Source of the DNA: a virus | Strand: one strand, 5' to 3' | IMG/VR virus record: IMGVR_UViG_3300017991_000051 | Location: 62,001 to 126,000 of that record | Length of the DNA: 64,000 nt | Part shown: positions 8,139 through 63,848 of the stretch, piece by piece | Numbering within the stretch: the first letter of the stretch is position 1 | Layout: the number at the start of each line of letters is the position of its first letter | The notes under the pieces: generated by a model | Seen by the model: the letters and a program-made list of their open reading frames with translations, nothing else | What the model was told of the DNA's origin: nothing | The model's database searches: none | Made by a program: the position numbers and the translations under genes

Positions 8139-10728
8139 CGATCCACTGGTTCCACGCTGTCGGCCGGATATACACGTAGCGCTCCTGCACGCTCTGTAAC
8201 GCACCGGCGTTGTCGAACGCCTCCAAGAACACATCGTTATCCGGCAGCTCGTACCCCAAGCTTGTCAGCGTCTTCAGCAGGGTCTGCAGGCGCAGCCCCA
8301 CCGGCTCACCCTTCTTCTTCGCAAAGCGTATAATGGACCATCGTGACTTAGGAAACTGTCCGCGATGCTTCCCGATCAAGCGCATGAGGGTAAGAATCAG
8401 GCGGTACGACGCCGAGTAGTTGCTGTCGTCATCACCATAGGTAAGAAGCCCGTCAGCCTCCACCAGCACGCTGATATCGAATTCCTTATACGTATCAGCC
8501 GCCCACGCGCTAAGGCTGTTGAATACGGCCTTCAACGTGGATTGACGGACCGGCAGGTTATGGTCATGATACTGTAACCACTTCAGATAGTAGCTGATGA
8601 TGGAGTCACCGCCGTCGAAAGCGCTCCCGTTGTAGGTCAGCTTCTCCATCCCAGACATAAACACCCAGTTCTCGTACAAGGATCCGGTGGTCACGACCTG
8701 CTTCGACACGGGGATGATGACGTTCGCCTGCGTACCCGTCTTCAGCCACGAACGAATCGTCTTCACGTATGCGGGAGCCGCATCCACCACCACCGGTACC
8801 GGATGCTCCGCGGCCGCCGCCTCCGCGGCTTTAACGTCCCCCGTGCGCGTCAGCCGGAACGTTCTGAGGTTGAACTTCTCCACAAACCAACGTATGACGG
8901 GATGCCTATGCGCCGTCGGCGTCGCTACGCCCATGCTGATCATGGGCCAGTTCTTCAACGAGCTGAGAAGGTTGTGCGCGATGACGGCCAACACCGCCCA
9001 ATGAGCTGCCGTCACCCCGTCGTTAGACATGATACACTTCTTCGGCGCAAGCTTCTCGGCGTATGTCAGTCCCGAGCAGGGCAGATCCAGCGGCGCTGAA
9101 AACGCCTGCAGCTGCTCTACACTGCCCTCCCGCACGCGGAAGTTGGGGAACGACCACCACTCCTGCTTAGCGTTCCAGCCGATCGTTTCGTCGACGATGG
9201 TGATCGCCGGCTGGTAGATCAGCTTCCCGATGTCGTACAGCTTGTGCTGCCACGAGCGATGTATGTAGGATGTCCCAGCGCCGGCGTCCAATACCGTGTT
9301 CTCGACCCACTCGGCCGGCTTCTTCGTTATAGTCCGTACGTCCTCGTCGAACGGTACCTCCTTATCCCCCATCATGATCTTCCCCTGACAGCGTGTGGTA
9401 CCCGCCTTCGTATAGCGCAGGAGACGCTGGGGGATGATCTTCACCGACGAGATACGAAAGGCGTCCGACGTACCCTTGGACAGGTACAGCCCGTCATCCT
9501 TCTCCTCGATCGTCTTCCCCTCGAAATTGATGGTGCGTATAACTTGGCTGGCCGGCATCAGGTCGTGGAAGATCGTACGCTCGCGACTGTCGCAAAGTGC
9601 CAATAGCTGGTCCCTATACGCTTGGTTCAGGTCACTGGTGAGGAGCAGGCCCCGCGCCTCCGGATTGGTCTTGATGTAGTCCTTGAACACCTCAACGGCC
9701 GGCTTCGCGCTCTGTTCCATCATCGCCAGGAACTTCGCGGGTCCCGTACGCGCCAGCTTGGCCGTGATCTTCTTCGGGTCCTCTTCCGGATGCCACGTGG
9801 GTGCCGTCGCGATCATGGCATTCGACCGGCCTAACCGGAAGATATTCTGGAACATCTCCACACTCGGACGCCAGTCCCAGAAGATGATACGTGAGGCGTC
9901 GAGCACATTCCACGCGTAATCGGTGTTCGCACCCCACGCCACGACCGGAGGCGCGTCCGAACTACCGCGTACCACTCGGTAGTTGATGTGGATCTGGAGG
10001 GCCAGCAACGCGTCTCCCAACGCGTATACGGTGGGTGTCCCCGGCCGTATTCGGTCGAGAAACGCCAGCCCGTCGTCGTGATACTCGGTATCGCCACCGG
10101 GCCGGATGTTCAGTTCCTTGTAGTACTGCTTGCCGTGATTGGCCAGAAAATGATAGCCGCGGGCTCTCCCCGGCATGTCCTGAAACGGCACGACCAGCGC
10201 GTACCCTTTCATGCTCGTGATCGAGGACGTGGGCAGCAGCGCAACGTCTTCCTTATGCGCGCCCCCCAGCAGGCCCTCCGTCTTGACGGGGTGCCCAGTA
10301 TACGCCCCCCACGCCATCAACAGGTTTCTGACCGGCGCCTCAAGACCGTCAACACGGCCCTGTGCCGCCTCCCAGAAGCGTTTGTAGGCCTCACGTTCCG
10401 GCCACAACACGTTCACGTAGTAGTCGATAGTGGTCCGATCGGCCTGCAAAAACAGGTTCTGATCGCGCATTTCCTCTATGGCGGCCTCCACCGTCGGGAG
10501 CTGCTTGACCGTCTTGTACAGCTCGACTGGGGCGCCTACGACGCGGCAGTTCATGCAGTGATGCCAGCGCTTCTCGACCGGATCCGAACAAATGTGAAAT
10601 TCTTGCTGGTCACACGCCGGACACTTTGCTATATTTGGTGTTGAAGATGTCTTGACTTTTACGTCGATTGCGCGTAGAAAAGTATCATCGTTCACAAAGG
10701 TGTTAATTGACTTAGGAGGAACAGCCAT
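8077..10728 (-). CDS. Primase/helicase-like replication protein
   Basis: An 883-residue protein. An N-terminal zinc finger (CPAC at about 36-39, then HCMNC) is followed by a TOPRIM-like segment around YALGDALLALQI where the usual Glu is missing, as in phage primase-helicases with degenerate cores. The second half has a stretch beginning WPMISMGVATPTAHR in the position of a P-loop but lacking the GKT/S signature, followed by PVPVVVDAAP, which looks like a Walker B-type strand. The C terminus is helical and basic. It is probably a primase or primase-derived replication protein. The ATG overlaps a divergent ATG (both inside CCATGG), and its GAGGT site lies inside the neighbouring gene. The ATPase part may be inactive. 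Confidence 0.62.
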   Translation of the reverse strand: MAVPPKSINTFVNDDTFLRAIDVKVKTSSTPNIAKCPACDQQEFHICSDPVEKRWHHCMNCRVVGAPVELYKTVKQLPTVEAAIEEMRDQNLFLQADRTTIDYYVNVLWPEREAYKRFWEAAQGRVDGLEAPVRNLLMAWGAYTGHPVKTEGLLGGAHKEDVALLPTSSITSMKGYALVVPFQDMPGRARGYHFLANHGKQYYKELNIRPGGDTEYHDDGLAFLDRIRPGTPTVYALGDALLALQIHINYRVVRGSSDAPPVVAWGANTDYAWNVLDASRIIFWDWRPSVEMFQNIFRLGRSNAMIATAPTWHPEEDPKKITAKLARTGPAKFLAMMEQSAKPAVEVFKDYIKTNPEARGLLLTSDLNQAYRDQLLALCDSRERTIFHDLMPASQVIRTINFEGKTIEEKDDGLYLSKGTSDAFRISSVKIIPQRLLRYTKAGTTRCQGKIMMGDKEVPFDEDVRTITKKPAEWVENTVLDAGAGTSYIHRSWQHKLYDIGKLIYQPAITIVDETIGWNAKQEWWSFPNFRVREGSVEQLQAFSAPLDLPCSGLTYAEKLAPKKCIMSNDGVTAAHWAVLAVIAHNLLSSLKNWPMISMGVATPTAHRHPVIRWFVEKFNLRTFRLTRTGDVKAAEAAAAEHPVPVVVDAAPAYVKTIRSWLKTGTQANVIIPVSKQVVTTGSLYENWVFMSGMEKLTYNGSAFDGGDSIISYYLKWLQYHDHNLPVRQSTLKAVFNSLSAWAADTYKEFDISVLVEADGLLTYGDDDSNYSASYRLILTLMRLIGKHRGQFPKSRWSIIRFAKKKGEPVGLRLQTLLKTLTSLGYELPDNDVFLEAFDNAGALQSVQERYVYIRPTAWNQWIVKAFPSHQDLPDSAQLLAPQ
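10652..10680 (+). promoter_or_regulatory. Possible promoter, TTGACT-17-TAGAAA
   Basis: A TTGACT hexamer and a TAGAAA hexamer 17 bases apart on the plus strand, about 47 bases before the 416-aa gene. It would be embedded in the coding part of the divergent primase-like gene. The -10 half is weak. Confidence 0.35.
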
Positions 10729-11977
10729 GGATTACCTCGCTGATACCAGTCTACAGAAACTGCATATTCTTCGCAAGCAATTTCTGGATGGTGACTTACC
10801 AGCTTTCATTAAGAATGCGAATATAGCAGAGGAGAAGCCGGATGTCAACGCTCCTCTCGGCATTTTTGGTGATCCCGTCAAGCGGGAGTTTCCGTGTCAT
10901 ACGAAGGTCGCGACATGGCTTTCCTGTCTCTACTTCTGGGGCAGCAAACACAATGACGAACAGTGGGAGAGTTCCTACCCGCAGGAGAAGGCCGCCAATC
11001 GTCTCGAGAAGGCAGCCAAGTTCTGGGGCGTACTTCCCGCCGTCAAGCAGTTCATCGACGTGATGGAGAAGAAGAGTGAGGCACCGAACCGGCGTCTCAC
11101 GGATGACGACTACGCACTGGTAGTCAACTACGGGTCCGAACGGGTCCGACGCTTCCCCATCGTCAACGCCGCAACGGTGAAGAAGGCAGCCGCCAACCTC
11201 CGGCGCTACCGGGTCAGCTACCCATATGCATGGCGGAAGAAGGCCGCACGGAACATCCTCGAGAAGGCAATGGCGTTCGACGCAAGTGTCGGTGCCGATG
11301 ACCTCGACTATCTCCTGAAAGCCTCCGGCGCCTACATGGCGGAGCCACAGGATATCGCACTCCGCTTACGTATACGGGCCCACGTATTCCCCGATGAGAT
11401 CCGTGACAGGATGCGCAAGGCAGCGGATGCGGTAGAGGATGGGCAGTCACCGAAGATCGATGTACTGTGCAACCTCCTCGACGCCGCCGACCGGCAGTGC
11501 AAGAAGTACGCGCTGTACAACGACGGTATGCCGATGCCGGAAGAAGTATGCTACGCCGGCATGGCCGAGAAGGCCGCAGCCGCCGAGGTTCCCGTTGTCC
11601 AACTGACCACGGGCACGACCTTCACCCTCGACGCGATCAAGGACGCAGGCCTCGAGCCCTTTACGGCTCTGAAATCCGACTACGTGACTGAGCTGGCAGC
11701 CAACGATAAGGGCGATCTCGATATGGATAAGGTCGCCGCCATTCTTCCCACAATTCCGCGGGACGATGCGACGCTGTTGGAAAAAGCTTTCAAGGCCGTG
11801 GGCGTGACGCCGGCGGAGAAGGAAGCTGCACGTGATACCCAAAGGGATTTCTCCATGCGGGGTATCATCGAAGTGTTCGGCCAGCCCGACAACGACTTCA
11901 GCGGTGTCTTCAAGCTTCGCCATGGTGAGGACGTGCACGAGGATCTCCGTAAGAAACAAGAAGCCATGAACAGCTAA
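10727..11977 (+). CDS. Hypothetical protein, 416 aa
   Basis: The ATG at 10727 is used because AGGAGGA lies just before it; an in-frame start at 10652 would read through the divergent gene's 5' end and has no such site. The product is mostly helical, rich in Ala, Lys, Asp and Arg, without membrane segments or recognisable motifs. A high-helix, charged composition is common in phage DNA-binding or scaffold proteins, but no function is assigned. It and the following gene form a two-gene plus-strand unit. Confidence 0.75.
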   Translation: MDYLADTSLQKLHILRKQFLDGDLPAFIKNANIAEEKPDVNAPLGIFGDPVKREFPCHTKVATWLSCLYFWGSKHNDEQWESSYPQEKAANRLEKAAKFWGVLPAVKQFIDVMEKKSEAPNRRLTDDDYALVVNYGSERVRRFPIVNAATVKKAAANLRRYRVSYPYAWRKKAARNILEKAMAFDASVGADDLDYLLKASGAYMAEPQDIALRLRIRAHVFPDEIRDRMRKAADAVEDGQSPKIDVLCNLLDAADRQCKKYALYNDGMPMPEEVCYAGMAEKAAAAEVPVVQLTTGTTFTLDAIKDAGLEPFTALKSDYVTELAANDKGDLDMDKVAAILPTIPRDDATLLEKAFKAVGVTPAEKEAARDTQRDFSMRGIIEVFGQPDNDFSGVFKLRHGEDVHEDLRKKQEAMNS

Positions 11978-12008
11978 TCCGCGTGCCGGGGAGGAGGCAA
12001 GTTCCACC

Positions 12009-12734
12009 ATGCCATTCGCTAGTGACCTCAAGCGAAAGGAAGTCGCAGGCTGGTGGTCCAATCCCAACACATTCGGAACCGCGCTACTTGCGCTCGCCAT
12101 CGACGAGTTTGGTACCGAATGCTTCGGATGGGAACCTGAGACCATCAGGATGGAGGTACAGGATACCTACCATATCACCCTCCCGCAGGCTAATATGGAC
12201 AAGCTCATGGCGATGATCACCGCCCTGAGTACCAACCTCTTCTACGTCTCCGTCGAGTCCTTCACGCATATTGCCAACGCGCTAAATGATTCGGAAGCCG
12301 ACTTCTATACGTGGGATCCCGTCGACGCCGACGAGGCGGCATGGGCCATCACGGAGGTGGCGCTGTCCGACGCACCGCGGCCGCGGGAGTCCTTCGAAGA
12401 TCGCTTCTCCCACGATGTACGCCGTTACGTAGGCGTCATAGTCACCGATGAGGGTATCGTATCGCCGCCCGACGTACTCGGTATCGCGGAGATGGATCCC
12501 TCGGTGCAGAAGGCAGCGGACGTCACGTTCGCCGACGATCCGTCGATGTTCGCCGGCTTCTACCGGCTCAGCCAGGAGAAGGCGAACGACGTCACCCAGT
12601 ATGTGAGAAAGAGAACCGCTGCGCTGCTTAACCAGCTACAACGGCTCCCCCTCCAAAATCGCGATGAGAAGACGTGGAGTAAGTTCCTCGATCGGGCCCA
12701 GCACAGTAAAGCACTCTCCGGCATTGCCGGCTAA
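12009..12734 (+). CDS. Hypothetical protein, 241 aa
   Basis: Preceded by a strong GGAGGAGG. It is an acidic soluble protein with mixed secondary structure and no recognisable motif. It ends 33 bases before the convergent end of a minus-strand gene. Probably co-transcribed with the 416-aa gene upstream. Confidence 0.75.
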   Translation: MPFASDLKRKEVAGWWSNPNTFGTALLALAIDEFGTECFGWEPETIRMEVQDTYHITLPQANMDKLMAMITALSTNLFYVSVESFTHIANALNDSEADFYTWDPVDADEAAWAITEVALSDAPRPRESFEDRFSHDVRRYVGVIVTDEGIVSPPDVLGIAEMDPSVQKAADVTFADDPSMFAGFYRLSQEKANDVTQYVRKRTAALLNQLQRLPLQNRDEKTWSKFLDRAQHSKALSGIAG

Positions 12735-17214: not shown

Positions 17215-17388
17215 TCAGTCCAGATTGAACCGGCTCAGTTCGTTACGGAGGGTTCGCGCCTCCTTGCGTGTTATGTGAAATGAATACCGGCTCCCTATGC
17301 GCAGGATCAGGCGTCGGTCGCGTACGTCCAACAGCCTATCGCTCGCAGGATCCGAATATACGTGTATACCGCGCATACGCGTACGCAT
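17215..17388 (-). CDS. Hypothetical protein, 57 aa
   Basis: A 57-residue, strongly basic, Arg-rich reading frame with a GGAGG site 6 bases before its ATG. It begins MRTRMRGIHVYSDPAS and ends NELSRFNLD. The composition is compatible with a small nucleic-acid-binding protein. It starts directly below the 390-base non-coding region, so it is the likely first gene of a transcript beginning there. Confidence 0.5.
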   Translation of the reverse strand: MRTRMRGIHVYSDPASDRLLDVRDRRLILRIGSRYSFHITRKEARTLRNELSRFNLD

Positions 17389-17636
17389 GTAGGGCCTCCT
17401 TTCTTCTCCAATAGCTAAACGAAAAGGGATCGTTGCCCGCCCTGGTAAGGGGCGGGCGATACCTACGATTTCGCGTATTATCGCCTAATGTGAAAAAGAC
17501 TCCCGACGAAAAATGTGTAGAGGGTAGTTCATCAAGGATTGAATGTACTCCACACAGGCATTCGGGAGAAAAATGTGTGCACGTGACTGCCGCCCACCCG
17601 GGACACCGGAGTAAACGGCAGCACGCACACGGGGGA

Positions 17637-17660
17637 AACGGCGGCTTTCGCCGTTCTTTT
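17637..17660 (+). terminator. Possible rho-independent terminator, plus strand
   Basis: AACGGCG, a 5-base loop, CGCCGTT and then CTTTT on the plus strand. There is no coding gene for it to end on this strand, so if real it would end a non-coding transcript from the hairpin block. Confidence 0.35.
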
Positions 17661-17748
17661 CCGGAACGCACGACAGAGCCGTGCGTCCCAGAAACAAGAA
17701 AAGAAGAATAAGAATGAGTGCAGCTGAACGCTAATCCGTCTGCATCTT

Positions 17749-17777
17749 ATTATGCCGCAATTCACCCCTTTTTTTAA
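17749..17777 (-). promoter_or_regulatory. Possible promoter, TTAAAA-17-CATAAT
   Basis: On the minus strand, TTAAAA (17772-17777) and CATAAT (17749-17754) are 17 bases apart, right behind the stop of the 107-aa gene. It shares CGGCATAATA with the site at 18722. It would transcribe the hairpin block and then the 57-aa gene. Confidence 0.45.
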
Positions 17778-17778
17778 C

Positions 17779-18721: not shown

Positions 18722-18749
18722 ATTATGCCGTAAATTGCCGCCGGTTTAA
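18722..18749 (-). promoter_or_regulatory. Possible promoter, TTAAAC-16-CATAAT
   Basis: On the minus strand TTAAAC (18744-18749) and CATAAT (18722-18727) at 16-base spacing; the -35 overlaps the stop of the upstream gene. CGGCATAATA is shared with the site at 17749. Confidence 0.42.
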
Positions 18750-44074: not shown

Positions 44075-46876
44075 TTATACCACCAAGTGGACTTCCACGT
44101 TGTTCAGTGGCTCCGGCAGATCCAGATCCAACACGATCACCACACGGTCATGCAGTGTCGGATGTCGCTGGATGCTGACGATGTCTCCGCTAATCAGCTG
44201 ACCACCCACGGTCGGCAGATTAGAATTGTTCACCAAGTAATCGATCGCATCGGTGATTTCAGCGCGCAGCTGGTTCATGGTCTGCTCCGTCACATTGGAG
44301 ATACCAATGTACGGTGCCACCTGCGCGAGGATCACGTAGCTGATCGAATCCAAGTTGGCGCTGATCATTTCCTCCCTGCTGTTGAGATCGGTCATGTCCG
44401 TTGTAAGGTCGTGTCGGACATAGATCTCGCCAGCTGGGGATTCGGTGACGATGCATGTACCGGAAGCGGCCATTGTATCCAGCTCGTCTTCCGTGAACAT
44501 CTCGGTCGTCCGCTCGACGGAGTCGACGCCGGCGACTGCAACGTTGGTCAGGCTCCTCTGAGGGGCCGTACCGGACCGCAAACCCGCGAGGGCCGCTGCC
44601 AGGTAGAAGCCAGACACCAGATCGGTGCCGCTCTCGAAGTAGTCAGGCCAGACGTTGGACACACGCCGGTTCGAGAAGTGTGCGCTGCCGGCTGCAACCG
44701 CGGCCGCCATCTCGGCGTCGCTGAGGTCGCGCCAGATCTCGATCTTGGCTGCGACACTGATCGGGGACGATGGACCGGTCAGGAGCCGGACGCTGTCCTC
44801 CGACAGTACGGCATCGATCGTGTACTCGCTGTACGTCACGTTCCCGAAACCGTCGGTGGAGTACTGTGCCCGGACCTTGTCGCCGGCAATCACACCCGCC
44901 GTGATGATATCGACGTCGGTCGTGATCTCCACCAGCGTGTACTGCAGTCCGCTTGTGCCCGGATCGTCGGTGATCGTCGCGAGGACGGGGTCGCCGCTCG
45001 AATCCGCGGTCACGATCCCGCTCTCTTCCGCCAGCTCCGTGGATGTCCACATACGCCGCCAGCGACCGAACTCTGCGGCGCTCATGGCGTCACAGTGAGC
45101 TGCCACCGCGTCGTGGATAGCGGTCGTGAAGGTCATCGGCACGAGGCCGTGCACGTCGTTACGCTGCGTCAGCTTGCCCAGCGCGGCGTTGTAGCCCGCC
45201 AGATCGTCGGTTGGCACGCAGATGTACTTGACGTCCGTCCCGTTCGAATTCAGGAGGGCCATGTACACACCGTACGCAACCGGGTTGTCGACCGACAGCG
45301 TACCGAGCGCTGCTGCGAGGGCGCTGGTGAGGCTGATGGTGCCGACGGCAGTGCAACAGCCTTGCAGGAGAGCCCTGTAATAGACCCATGCATCCCCGCC
45401 CTTTACTGGGAGAGGCAGCATGACACCGTCGTCGTCCACCCACGTCGAATCGTAGGAGAGGATGCCGTCCGCCAGGCAGATCTCTGTGGCGGAGGTCGTC
45501 CAGTTGACGATAGGTGCGAAGCCGGTCCGGTCTTCCGGCACCTCGATATCCTTCTGGATATACAGAGTAACGGAGAGGTCGGGCACCGTCGCACATACGC
45601 CGGCGTCGTTCAGGCCGATAAGGTCGTCAGGCAGGTTGTGACCGAGCACCAGCGTCCGGATAGCACCGGCTGCTGGAGCCGTAACCGGAATGTAGTACCT
45701 GTCGCCCCTGTAGAGACCTTGGCCGGCCCCGATAAGCGATGTGAATCGGATCGTGACCCCGTAGGAGCCGATCGCAACATTCGTGTCCAGTGCGGCCACG
45801 GAATGCGGTCCGCTGGAGTCGATACCGGTTGTCGTCGAGATGGTGACCTGCGGGGTGCTCGCACCGCCGAACATACCACCTGTGGTAACCTCGATGACGT
45901 ACGTGGTGTCGGAGGGCCCACTGTAGGTACCGCCGGACACAGGATCCACGTCCACGGCGCCGAAGTTGACCGTCAGTTCCCACTTCATACCGTCGACGAA
46001 GATGTCCGCGCCTGCACGGGTCCACGTCACGCTGAGGCTCTTGTTACCGAACGGCGTCGCAACGCCCCAGTCGTTTGGTGTCAGTTCCGCCGTATCATCG
46101 GTACCGCTGGCGCTCGTCACACGGATAATCGCATCCGCCGGCGCGCCGCCGACAATGACTTCCAGCGTATACTCATCGGATTGAACACCGTCAATGTATC
46201 CCTGCTCCGGATGGTCTGGGGGAGTCGCCGCATCCGTGATGTCCACGGAATTGCCGGCAAAGCCGATCTTGTCGATGACGATGGAGGGGTTGATAGACGA
46301 AGATTCGTCGAGAGGTGCGGATTCGTTGTTCGGATCCTCTACGGCATCCCCAACAACACCGGGGATCTCGTCGGCCATGAAACCGGCCACGTAGGTCCAC
46401 AGTGTCACGGTCTCGGCGCCGATGACGGCTTCCACCTTGGCGATATCGCCGACGGTCACGTCACGGTTGCGGAGGGCCGCAGCGCGCGCGTACGCGCCGG
46501 AGGTCACCCAGTTGGTGTTCGCAGCCCGAATGGCGTTCTTGACTTGAGGATCACCCACCACGTCGGGCAGGTTGCAGAAAGTAGCTTGGATTTCATCGCC
46601 GGTACTGGCTGGGTTGTGGAAGTACTGGAGCAGCGCGTCATCAATAAACACCCGGGTCCAGTCCTGATCCACCACCGCGCCCGCCGAACGATTCGGCCAG
46701 CTGTAACATGTTTCGGAGTTCGGATCGTACTCTCCGAGTGCTCCCTGTGCAGCAGTCGTCACCAGCTCATAATTCGGCCCTATGATACACGCCCGCAGCG
46801 GTTCCGTAATCGCCGTAGGCAACAGGGTGAACTCCTGGTAGACAAGTGCTTGTGGTACTACGTATGATGTAGGCAT
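44075..46876 (-). CDS. Tail sheath protein
   Basis: A 933-residue protein. The N-terminal PTSYVVPQALVYQEF and C-terminal segment (LISGDIVSIQRHPTLHDRVVIVLD... LPEPLNNVEVHL) are the characteristic ends of contractile tail sheath proteins, with several beta domains and long inserts in between. It is larger than the usual 400-700 residues. The RBS GGAGGAAAACG precedes the ATG. It is followed by the tube gene. Confidence 0.85.
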   Translation of the reverse strand: MPTSYVVPQALVYQEFTLLPTAITEPLRACIIGPNYELVTTAAQGALGEYDPNSETCYSWPNRSAGAVVDQDWTRVFIDDALLQYFHNPASTGDEIQATFCNLPDVVGDPQVKNAIRAANTNWVTSGAYARAAALRNRDVTVGDIAKVEAVIGAETVTLWTYVAGFMADEIPGVVGDAVEDPNNESAPLDESSSINPSIVIDKIGFAGNSVDITDAATPPDHPEQGYIDGVQSDEYTLEVIVGGAPADAIIRVTSASGTDDTAELTPNDWGVATPFGNKSLSVTWTRAGADIFVDGMKWELTVNFGAVDVDPVSGGTYSGPSDTTYVIEVTTGGMFGGASTPQVTISTTTGIDSSGPHSVAALDTNVAIGSYGVTIRFTSLIGAGQGLYRGDRYYIPVTAPAAGAIRTLVLGHNLPDDLIGLNDAGVCATVPDLSVTLYIQKDIEVPEDRTGFAPIVNWTTSATEICLADGILSYDSTWVDDDGVMLPLPVKGGDAWVYYRALLQGCCTAVGTISLTSALAAALGTLSVDNPVAYGVYMALLNSNGTDVKYICVPTDDLAGYNAALGKLTQRNDVHGLVPMTFTTAIHDAVAAHCDAMSAAEFGRWRRMWTSTELAEESGIVTADSSGDPVLATITDDPGTSGLQYTLVEITTDVDIITAGVIAGDKVRAQYSTDGFGNVTYSEYTIDAVLSEDSVRLLTGPSSPISVAAKIEIWRDLSDAEMAAAVAAGSAHFSNRRVSNVWPDYFESGTDLVSGFYLAAALAGLRSGTAPQRSLTNVAVAGVDSVERTTEMFTEDELDTMAASGTCIVTESPAGEIYVRHDLTTDMTDLNSREEMISANLDSISYVILAQVAPYIGISNVTEQTMNQLRAEITDAIDYLVNNSNLPTVGGQLISGDIVSIQRHPTLHDRVVIVLDLDLPEPLNNVEVHLVV

Positions 46877-62879: not shown

Positions 62880-63848
62880 TTAGTAGCGCCACACGTCGAG
62901 ATCCTCGACCGTACCCGTGAAGTCGGCACGCGCCACGCCGGCGACGTTACCGATTGCACTACCCAGCTCTTCGTAAGCGAAGAAGTTGAGCATGTAGGCC
63001 TTTTTCTCGATGTGCATGGTCGTGTCCTCGAGGATGAAGAACTTCCCGAGGAACTTCGGTTCCGCGAACATGTACATGCTGCCGTCACCCACCAGATCGC
63101 GCTTGATCGTGATGATCCAGCGGACGGCGAGGAAGGTGCGTTCCGCAAAGCCGTTTCGGACGATTTCCTCGGAGAGGTCACCACCGACTTCGTCACGGCC
63201 CCACTTCTGCAGGTCCTTCACGAACACGTTGTTGATCAGGGCCGTCGAGACTTCGAGATGGCTCGGGGTCTGAGGCATGATCTTCAGCGCGTCGTTGACT
63301 GTTTCACGGGTCACGCCACCACCGAACGTGCGCCACTGGATGGTGCCCGTCTCGGGAACGACCTGATTCAGGCCCACGAGGGCCGCGATGCAGGCGCGGA
63401 TGGCTTTGCCGTCTTCTTCTGCCAGCATATCCTTGATCGCGTTGTCGGACAGGACCTGACGAATGTCCATGTCCCATGTACGCAGCCGGCCCACGTCGGT
63501 CGTGAAGTTCGGCGTAACAATACGGTCGAACATAACACGGTACCGGGGACCTTGGATGTACCGGTTCATCGGAAGGGTGGCGTACGGAATGCTGATAGCC
63601 GCCGGGCTGTCAGGTTCCTTATCCACGACCTTCACGTTCTTCTCCGTGTCGACCTGGCGATCCAGCTCATCATTGCTGATGGGCACCGGAGGAAGAATTT
63701 TGCGCCAGAAACCGTCTTCACGCATCTTCACGCGGGTGAAGTCGTTGACGGCCTGTTGGGCGTCCTTCTGAAGGGCACTGTCATCCGACGTGATCTTCTC
63801 GAAGAAAGCCTGGTTGATTGCCTTGGTTGAGTATTCTTGCTCACTCAT
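62880..63848 (-). CDS. Probable major capsid protein
   Basis: 322 residues from the ATG at 63848, which has AAGAGGTAAAG upstream. Size, position at the head of the structural genes, the strong hairpin behind it and the general style (helical N terminus with QKDAQQAVNDFTR, beta-rich body with WDMDIRQVLSD and IVRNGFAERTFLAVRW) fit an HK97-fold capsid protein. No single motif proves it, so the call rests on order and size. Confidence 0.62.
   Translation of the reverse strand: MSEQEYSTKAINQAFFEKITSDDSALQKDAQQAVNDFTRVKMREDGFWRKILPPVPISNDELDRQVDTEKNVKVVDKEPDSPAAISIPYATLPMNRYIQGPRYRVMFDRIVTPNFTTDVGRLRTWDMDIRQVLSDNAIKDMLAEEDGKAIRACIAALVGLNQVVPETGTIQWRTFGGGVTRETVNDALKIMPQTPSHLEVSTALINNVFVKDLQKWGRDEVGGDLSEEIVRNGFAERTFLAVRWIITIKRDLVGDGSMYMFAEPKFLGKFFILEDTTMHIEKKAYMLNFFAYEELGSAIGNVAGVARADFTGTVEDLDVWRY

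What the first reader, a model, noticed from the sequence alone, without database searches (positions are those of the whole stretch)
17389..17778. 390-base non-coding block with nested hairpins
It lies in an otherwise gene-dense phage stretch and holds at least five stem-loops, several nested (17500-17568 and 17575-17630), a plus-strand hairpin followed by CTTTT and a minus-strand U-run behind the 17500-17568 stem. Such a block may be a structured RNA, an attenuator, or a replication origin or packaging site. It has no convincing coding frame.
Basis: partly seen in the sequence, partly recalled or inferred. Interest (0 to 1): 0.7.

Follow-up and report, generated by a model that had tools for sequence, protein, structure and literature searches.

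The report
Likely small-RNA gene in large phage
A 390-base gap in a large virus of bacteria is not empty: it carries a promoter motif that the virus record holds only four times, several strong RNA hairpins and two likely stop signals, so it most likely makes a short non-coding RNA of about 175-250 bases that may also gate the genes behind it; such RNAs are known in other phages, but this one has no detectable relatives.

Summary
Window 17389-17778 is non-coding and is the most strongly folding 390-base stretch of the 169,252-bp phage record (rank 1 of 651 windows; minus strand z -8.2). The relevant strand is minus, the direction of the genes on both sides. At its minus-strand 5' end lies TTAAAN-(16/17)-GGCATAAT-type promoter. 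This motif occurs exactly four times in the record, always intergenic and on the minus strand (shuffled gaps: 0.006 expected). One other copy precedes a tRNA-Met; two precede terminator-like hairpins. Downstream in the block come a pyrimidine-rich leader, two compact hairpins, a -41 kcal/mol hairpin followed by UUUUU, a nested hairpin followed by UUUUU, a fifth hairpin, a ribosome-binding site and the next small gene. Best reading: a phage small-RNA gene (~175 or ~250 nt) doubling as a promoter-terminator leader for the genes behind it. Transcription is not shown. The block sits in a segment that the three relatives compared by synteny lack; neither sequence nor a structure model finds it in 50 relatives, so covariation cannot be tested. 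No Rfam family matches; no skew extremum supports an origin. New member of a known kind (phage non-coding RNAs).

The parts
17749..17777 (-). Promoter candidate: TTAAAA - 17 nt - CATAAT, extended GGCATAAT (17756-17749); start predicted near 17743
   Evidence: motif TTAAAN-(16/17)-CATAAT with GG before the second element occurs 4 times in 169 kb, all minus strand, all intergenic; one copy lies directly upstream of a tRNA-Met
17695..17743 (-). Predicted 5' leader of the RNA, weakly structured, pyrimidine-rich 3' half
   Evidence: 17700-17742 folds no better than shuffles (z -0.3); start inferred from the promoter
17658..17694 (-). Hairpin H1, 17 pairs, nearly perfect
   Evidence: (z -5.4)
17636..17656 (-). 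Hairpin H2, 8 pairs; read on the plus strand it is followed by CTTTT
   Evidence: (z -3.2)
17569..17630 (-). Hairpin H3 (17630-17577, -40.7 kcal/mol) and U5 run (17573-17569): terminator candidate T1, RNA of about 175 nt
   Evidence: z -6.1, 0 of 200 shuffles
17493..17568 (-). Nested hairpin H4 (outer 17568-17500, inner 17556-17514 with its own U5 at 17513-17509) and U5 at 17497-17493: terminator candidate T2, RNA of about 250 nt
   Evidence: (z -3.1); shared ACACATTTTTC element 60 nt apart
17435..17457 (-). Hairpin H5 between T2 and the next gene
   Evidence: region around it not exceptional (z -1.4)
17395..17402 (-). Ribosome-binding site AAAGGAGG of the ORF that starts at 17388
17215..17388 (-). 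Downstream ORF, 57 aa, no relatives found; would be read only by transcription through T1 and T2 or from an unrecognised promoter
18722..18749 (-). Second copy of the same promoter motif in the next gap upstream, followed by a 12-pair hairpin + TTTCTTT (18705-18678)

Best explanation
The block is a non-coding RNA gene of the phage, transcribed leftwards (minus strand) from its own promoter at 17777-17749. Transcription starts near 17743, makes a short pyrimidine-rich leader and then compact hairpins H1-H3, and stops at T1 (near 17569; ~175 nt) or, on read-through, at T2 (near 17493; ~250 nt). Transcripts arriving from the gene cluster upstream also end at T1/T2. Because the terminators lie between the promoter and the ribosome-binding site of the next gene, the unit also acts as a promoter-terminator leader: genes from 17388 on are reached only by the fraction of polymerases that read through. 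Shown: non-coding status, exceptional structure, promoter motif shared with the upstream region of a tRNA gene. Inferred: transcription, start and end points, termination, and any function of the RNA in trans.
For: Promoter motif: all five GGCATAAT sites on the two strands are intergenic although gaps are 10% of the record; all four on the minus strand have TTAAA at the right spacing (500 shuffles of the gaps give 0.006 such pairs on average). One copy precedes tRNA-Met, so it probably promotes a stable RNA; another lies directly before a -33.9 kcal/mol hairpin + T7, and that gap is also among the most structured windows. Structure: z -8.2, top of 651 windows, H1-H3 alone z -8.3. Two U5 runs follow hairpins on the sense strand. 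No coding frame.
Against: No transcript data. T1 is imperfect: the predicted H3 stem ends 3 nt before the U run, and neither terminator scan listed it. The -35 element is not the usual TTGACA, and no sigma-70 region 2 or 4 was found in the phage, so what reads the motif is unknown. The motif is absent from 50 relatives and its matches elsewhere in IMG/VR lie inside open frames. No homologue of block or structure, hence no covariation. No antisense target above chance.
Confidence: 0.6

Rival explanations
1. Operon boundary only: T1 and T2 are a strong tandem terminator that ends the transcript of the upstream genes, H1 and H2 are stability or processing hairpins in its 3' end, and no discrete functional RNA is made.
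For: Terminator-like hairpins close many gaps of this phage, including a nested hairpin repeated about seven times. Promoter matches can be fortuitous. Genes on both sides run the same way.
Against: The promoter lies upstream of the hairpins, is one of four with the same two elements and spacing, and another copy precedes a tRNA; a plain boundary needs neither it nor H1/H2.
Confidence: 0.2
2. Antitermination-gated leader, working like lambda pR'-tR': a constitutive promoter makes a short terminated RNA until a phage factor, or H1/H2 acting like HK022 put RNA, lets polymerase pass T1 and T2 into the genes behind.
For: Promoter, then hairpins, then terminators, then RBS is seen here and, in shorter form, in two other gaps with the same promoter. 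put RNA consists of two adjacent stem-loops of about 70 nt downstream of a promoter (PMC9378689); H1+H2 span 59 nt.
Against: No Phage_antitermQ homologue. H1/H2 resemble put only in layout; no sequence test was made. The other two promoter-terminator gaps lack an H1/H2 pair.
Confidence: 0.15
3. DNA element: replication origin or packaging site whose hairpins act in DNA.
For: Both strands can fold; the ends of the genome are unknown, so the packaging site is unknown too.
Against: No GC-skew extremum at the block, no strand change of genes, no iteron-like repeats; folding is better on the transcribed strand, and U-runs follow hairpins on that strand.
Confidence: 0.05

Closest known systems
Intergenic sRNA1 and sRNA2 of virulent Pseudomonas phage PAK_P3 (PMC4933390)
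   Same: Small RNAs from intergenic gaps of a virulent phage, one of them between tRNA genes; function unknown
   Different: Those were seen by RNA-seq and are about 100 nt; this one is predicted, longer, and its promoter motif recurs before a tRNA gene elsewhere in the genome
lncRNA1 and lncRNA2 regions of Kayvirus vB_SauM-515A1 (PMC7698491)
   Same: Non-coding regions of 525-570 bp in a large phage, close to tRNA genes; lncRNA2 has its own promoter
   Different: Highly transcribed in the data; the block here is not next to a tRNA and no sequence relation to any phage in the collection was found
Lambda pR'-tR' short RNA and antitermination control (general knowledge)
   Same: Promoter, short terminated RNA, then genes
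   Different: No PF06530 Q-family protein found; two or three terminator hairpins here; genes behind are small unknowns
HK022 put RNA (PMC9378689)
   Same: Two adjacent stem-loops in a leader upstream of terminators
   Different: Layout only; no sequence test was made

Membership tests
Phage-encoded small non-coding RNA | Non-coding stretch between genes | tested here: met
Phage-encoded small non-coding RNA | Own promoter | tested here: met
   By motif only:
Phage-encoded small non-coding RNA | Defined 3' end (terminator) | tested here: inconclusive
   Hairpin + U5 twice; T1 stem ends 3 nt before the U run; no 3'-end data
Phage-encoded small non-coding RNA | Discrete transcript during infection | not testable with these tools
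   No RNA data
Phage-encoded small non-coding RNA | Structure kept by covariation in relatives | tested here: inconclusive
   No homologue in 50 relatives by DNA or by covariance model R1
Any Rfam 15 family | Score at or above the family's gathering score | tested here: not met
Lambda Q-type antitermination leader | Promoter followed by terminator ahead of the genes | tested here: met
   (by sequence only)
Lambda Q-type antitermination leader | Q-family antiterminator in the phage | tested here: not met
   PF06530 finds nothing while control genomes ring; other Q families not tested, record may be incomplete
Bidirectional replication origin | GC-skew extremum at the site | tested here: not met
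phiKZ late promoter (nvRNAP) | TATG with the G as start site, no -10/-35 | tested here: not met
   Sites have two spaced elements; TATG near the predicted start in 1 of 4 (motif from PMC4666361)

The most novel reading that the evidence does not exclude
A dedicated promoter class (TTAAAN-(16/17)-GGCATAAT-type), used only for stable or promptly terminated RNAs, drives a small set of non-coding RNAs in this polymerase-encoding phage: the block RNA, two hairpin RNAs and a tRNA. The terminators behind the promoters are opened by a phage factor of a new kind.
Probability: 0.12. Interest if true: 0.65.

Novelty: new member of a known kind. Interest (0 to 1): 0.42.

Why it matters
Few small RNAs of virulent phages are known and most lack a function. 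Here a promoter motif found from sequence alone links a structured orphan block to a tRNA gene and to two further hairpin units, giving four places where transcription can be tested at once in a group of large phages that encodes at least part of a multisubunit RNA polymerase.

Tried and rejected
Replication origin: no skew extremum. Known RNA family: none (weak MIR898 and Thr_leader matches far below cut-off). Hidden gene: negative coding scores. Homologues: blastn and tblastn in phages, peptide-pattern scans of IMG/VR with three proteins next to the block and with w25634-27319, 50 relatives reached through the major head protein, a covariance model of H1-H3 built from the block's single sequence: nothing beyond the block itself. 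Small matches to the 3' end of the block in some relatives are about what chance gives. The promoter in other viruses: 12 contigs, all inside open frames of 103-2412 codons and only one match per contig. Antisense targets: one 13-mer, as expected by chance. phiKZ-type late promoter: not matching. Sigma factor or Q protein in the phage: none found.

Full report
What the window is. The window is positions 62,001-126,000 of a 169,252-bp IMG/VR virus record. It is a tailed phage with a probable contractile tail (sheath-domain match at 44075-46876, just below Pfam's cut-off), a major head protein (62880-63848), its own DNA polymerase and helicases, the C-terminal half of an RNA polymerase beta' subunit (contig 137789-139660, PF04998, 1.6e-17), a tmRNA and at least eight tRNAs. 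Nearly all genes are on the minus strand. Relatives with 41-77% identical head proteins are numerous in IMG/VR; in the GenBank phage collection the nearest found are Salmonella phage Arash and Vibrio phages D69/D148/D181 at about 30%.

The observation. 17389-17778 lies between two minus-strand genes, has no coding frame, and folds far better than shuffled sequence, best on the minus strand (z -8.2; plus strand -6.1). It is first of 57 gaps and first of 651 windows of 390 nt over the whole record. Read as the minus-strand RNA the order is: weakly structured leader; H1 17694-17658; H2 17656-17636; H3 17630-17577 followed by U5; H4 17568-17500, nested, with U5 inside and U5 behind; H5 17457-17435; ribosome-binding site 17402-17395; start codon 17388. 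The H3 and inner H4 stems end in the same ACACATTTTTC sequence, 60 nt apart.

The promoter. The consensus scan lists TTAAAA-17-CATAAT at 17777-17749. Searching its extended second element, GGCATAAT, over the record gives five sites, all intergenic although gaps make up 10%. The four on the minus strand all have TTAAAN at a 16/17-nt spacer (the fifth is the plus-strand arm of a palindrome at one of them). I chose the motif from the block, so the block itself is not independent evidence; the other three are. Shuffling the gaps 500 times gives 0.006 such pairs on average. One of the three sits just upstream of tRNA-Met. The second, in the next gap upstream (18749-18722), is followed by a 12-pair hairpin and TTTCTTT. 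The third (contig 10,755) is followed at once by a -33.9 kcal/mol hairpin and T7. So the motif appears to mark starts of stable or promptly terminated RNAs. The tmRNA instead has a TTGCGC-17-TATACT promoter-like sequence. What recognises the motif is unknown: the phage has no detectable sigma region 2 or 4 (the record may be incomplete), and the motif does not match the phiKZ late promoter (PMC4666361).

Relatives. In the 216-kb relative G002 the genes on either side of this segment are conserved in order but only about 0.6 kb apart, against 4.7 kb here; in G003 and G009 they are about 1.4 and 0.6 kb apart. The block thus lies in an accessory segment of small unknown genes. Neither its protein neighbour nor its DNA nor a covariance model of H1-H3 (it finds the block itself with 164.6 bits) has a convincing match in 50 relatives. 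The model rests on one sequence, so it would miss distant forms. Covariation therefore could not be tested; the absence does not speak against an RNA, since flanking genes are missing too.

Mechanism. The simplest reading of a promoter, compact hairpins and two U-tailed hairpins ahead of a ribosome-binding site is a small RNA gene with tandem terminators, which also limits transcription into the genes behind and ends transcripts coming from upstream. Whether read-through is regulated, as in lambda pR'-tR' (general knowledge) or by a put-like RNA (PMC9378689), is open; no PF06530 Q-family protein was found.

Comparison. Phage small RNAs of unknown function are known: sRNA1/sRNA2 of PAK_P3 and T4 band C and D RNAs (PMC4933390), lncRNA1/2 of a Kayvirus (PMC7698491). 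The block probably works like these but matches no Rfam family and no phage in the collection searched. I rate it a new member of a known kind, moderately interesting because of the shared promoter class.

Noticed in passing
Contig 37.1-43.5 kb (L003/L004), outside the window: A nested hairpin of about 57 nt (core CCAACGGTTGAGCTAAGGCGCGCGG...CCGCGTCGCCTTCAGCTCCTTGTTGG) occurs about seven times in successive gaps between small genes, some copies followed by T runs: a possible dispersed terminator family.
   Followed up: partly
L002:8958-9318 (contig, minus strand), outside the window: Phage-encoded tmRNA, Rfam 131.5 bits, tag ADNEALPMAA, with a sigma-70-like promoter sequence.
   Followed up: partly
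Contig 137789-139660 (L006): RNA polymerase beta' C-terminal half; a full set of polymerase subunits was not identified.
   Followed up: partly
window 10727-12734: Two plus-strand genes inside an otherwise minus-strand genome; both have relatives in other phages of the group, the second in the opposite orientation in G002.
   Followed up: no
G003 contig 2693-2944 and 156618-157200: The relative G003 has its own strongly folding or internally repeated gaps, with no evident sequence relation to the block; one holds its tRNA-Met.
   Followed up: partly
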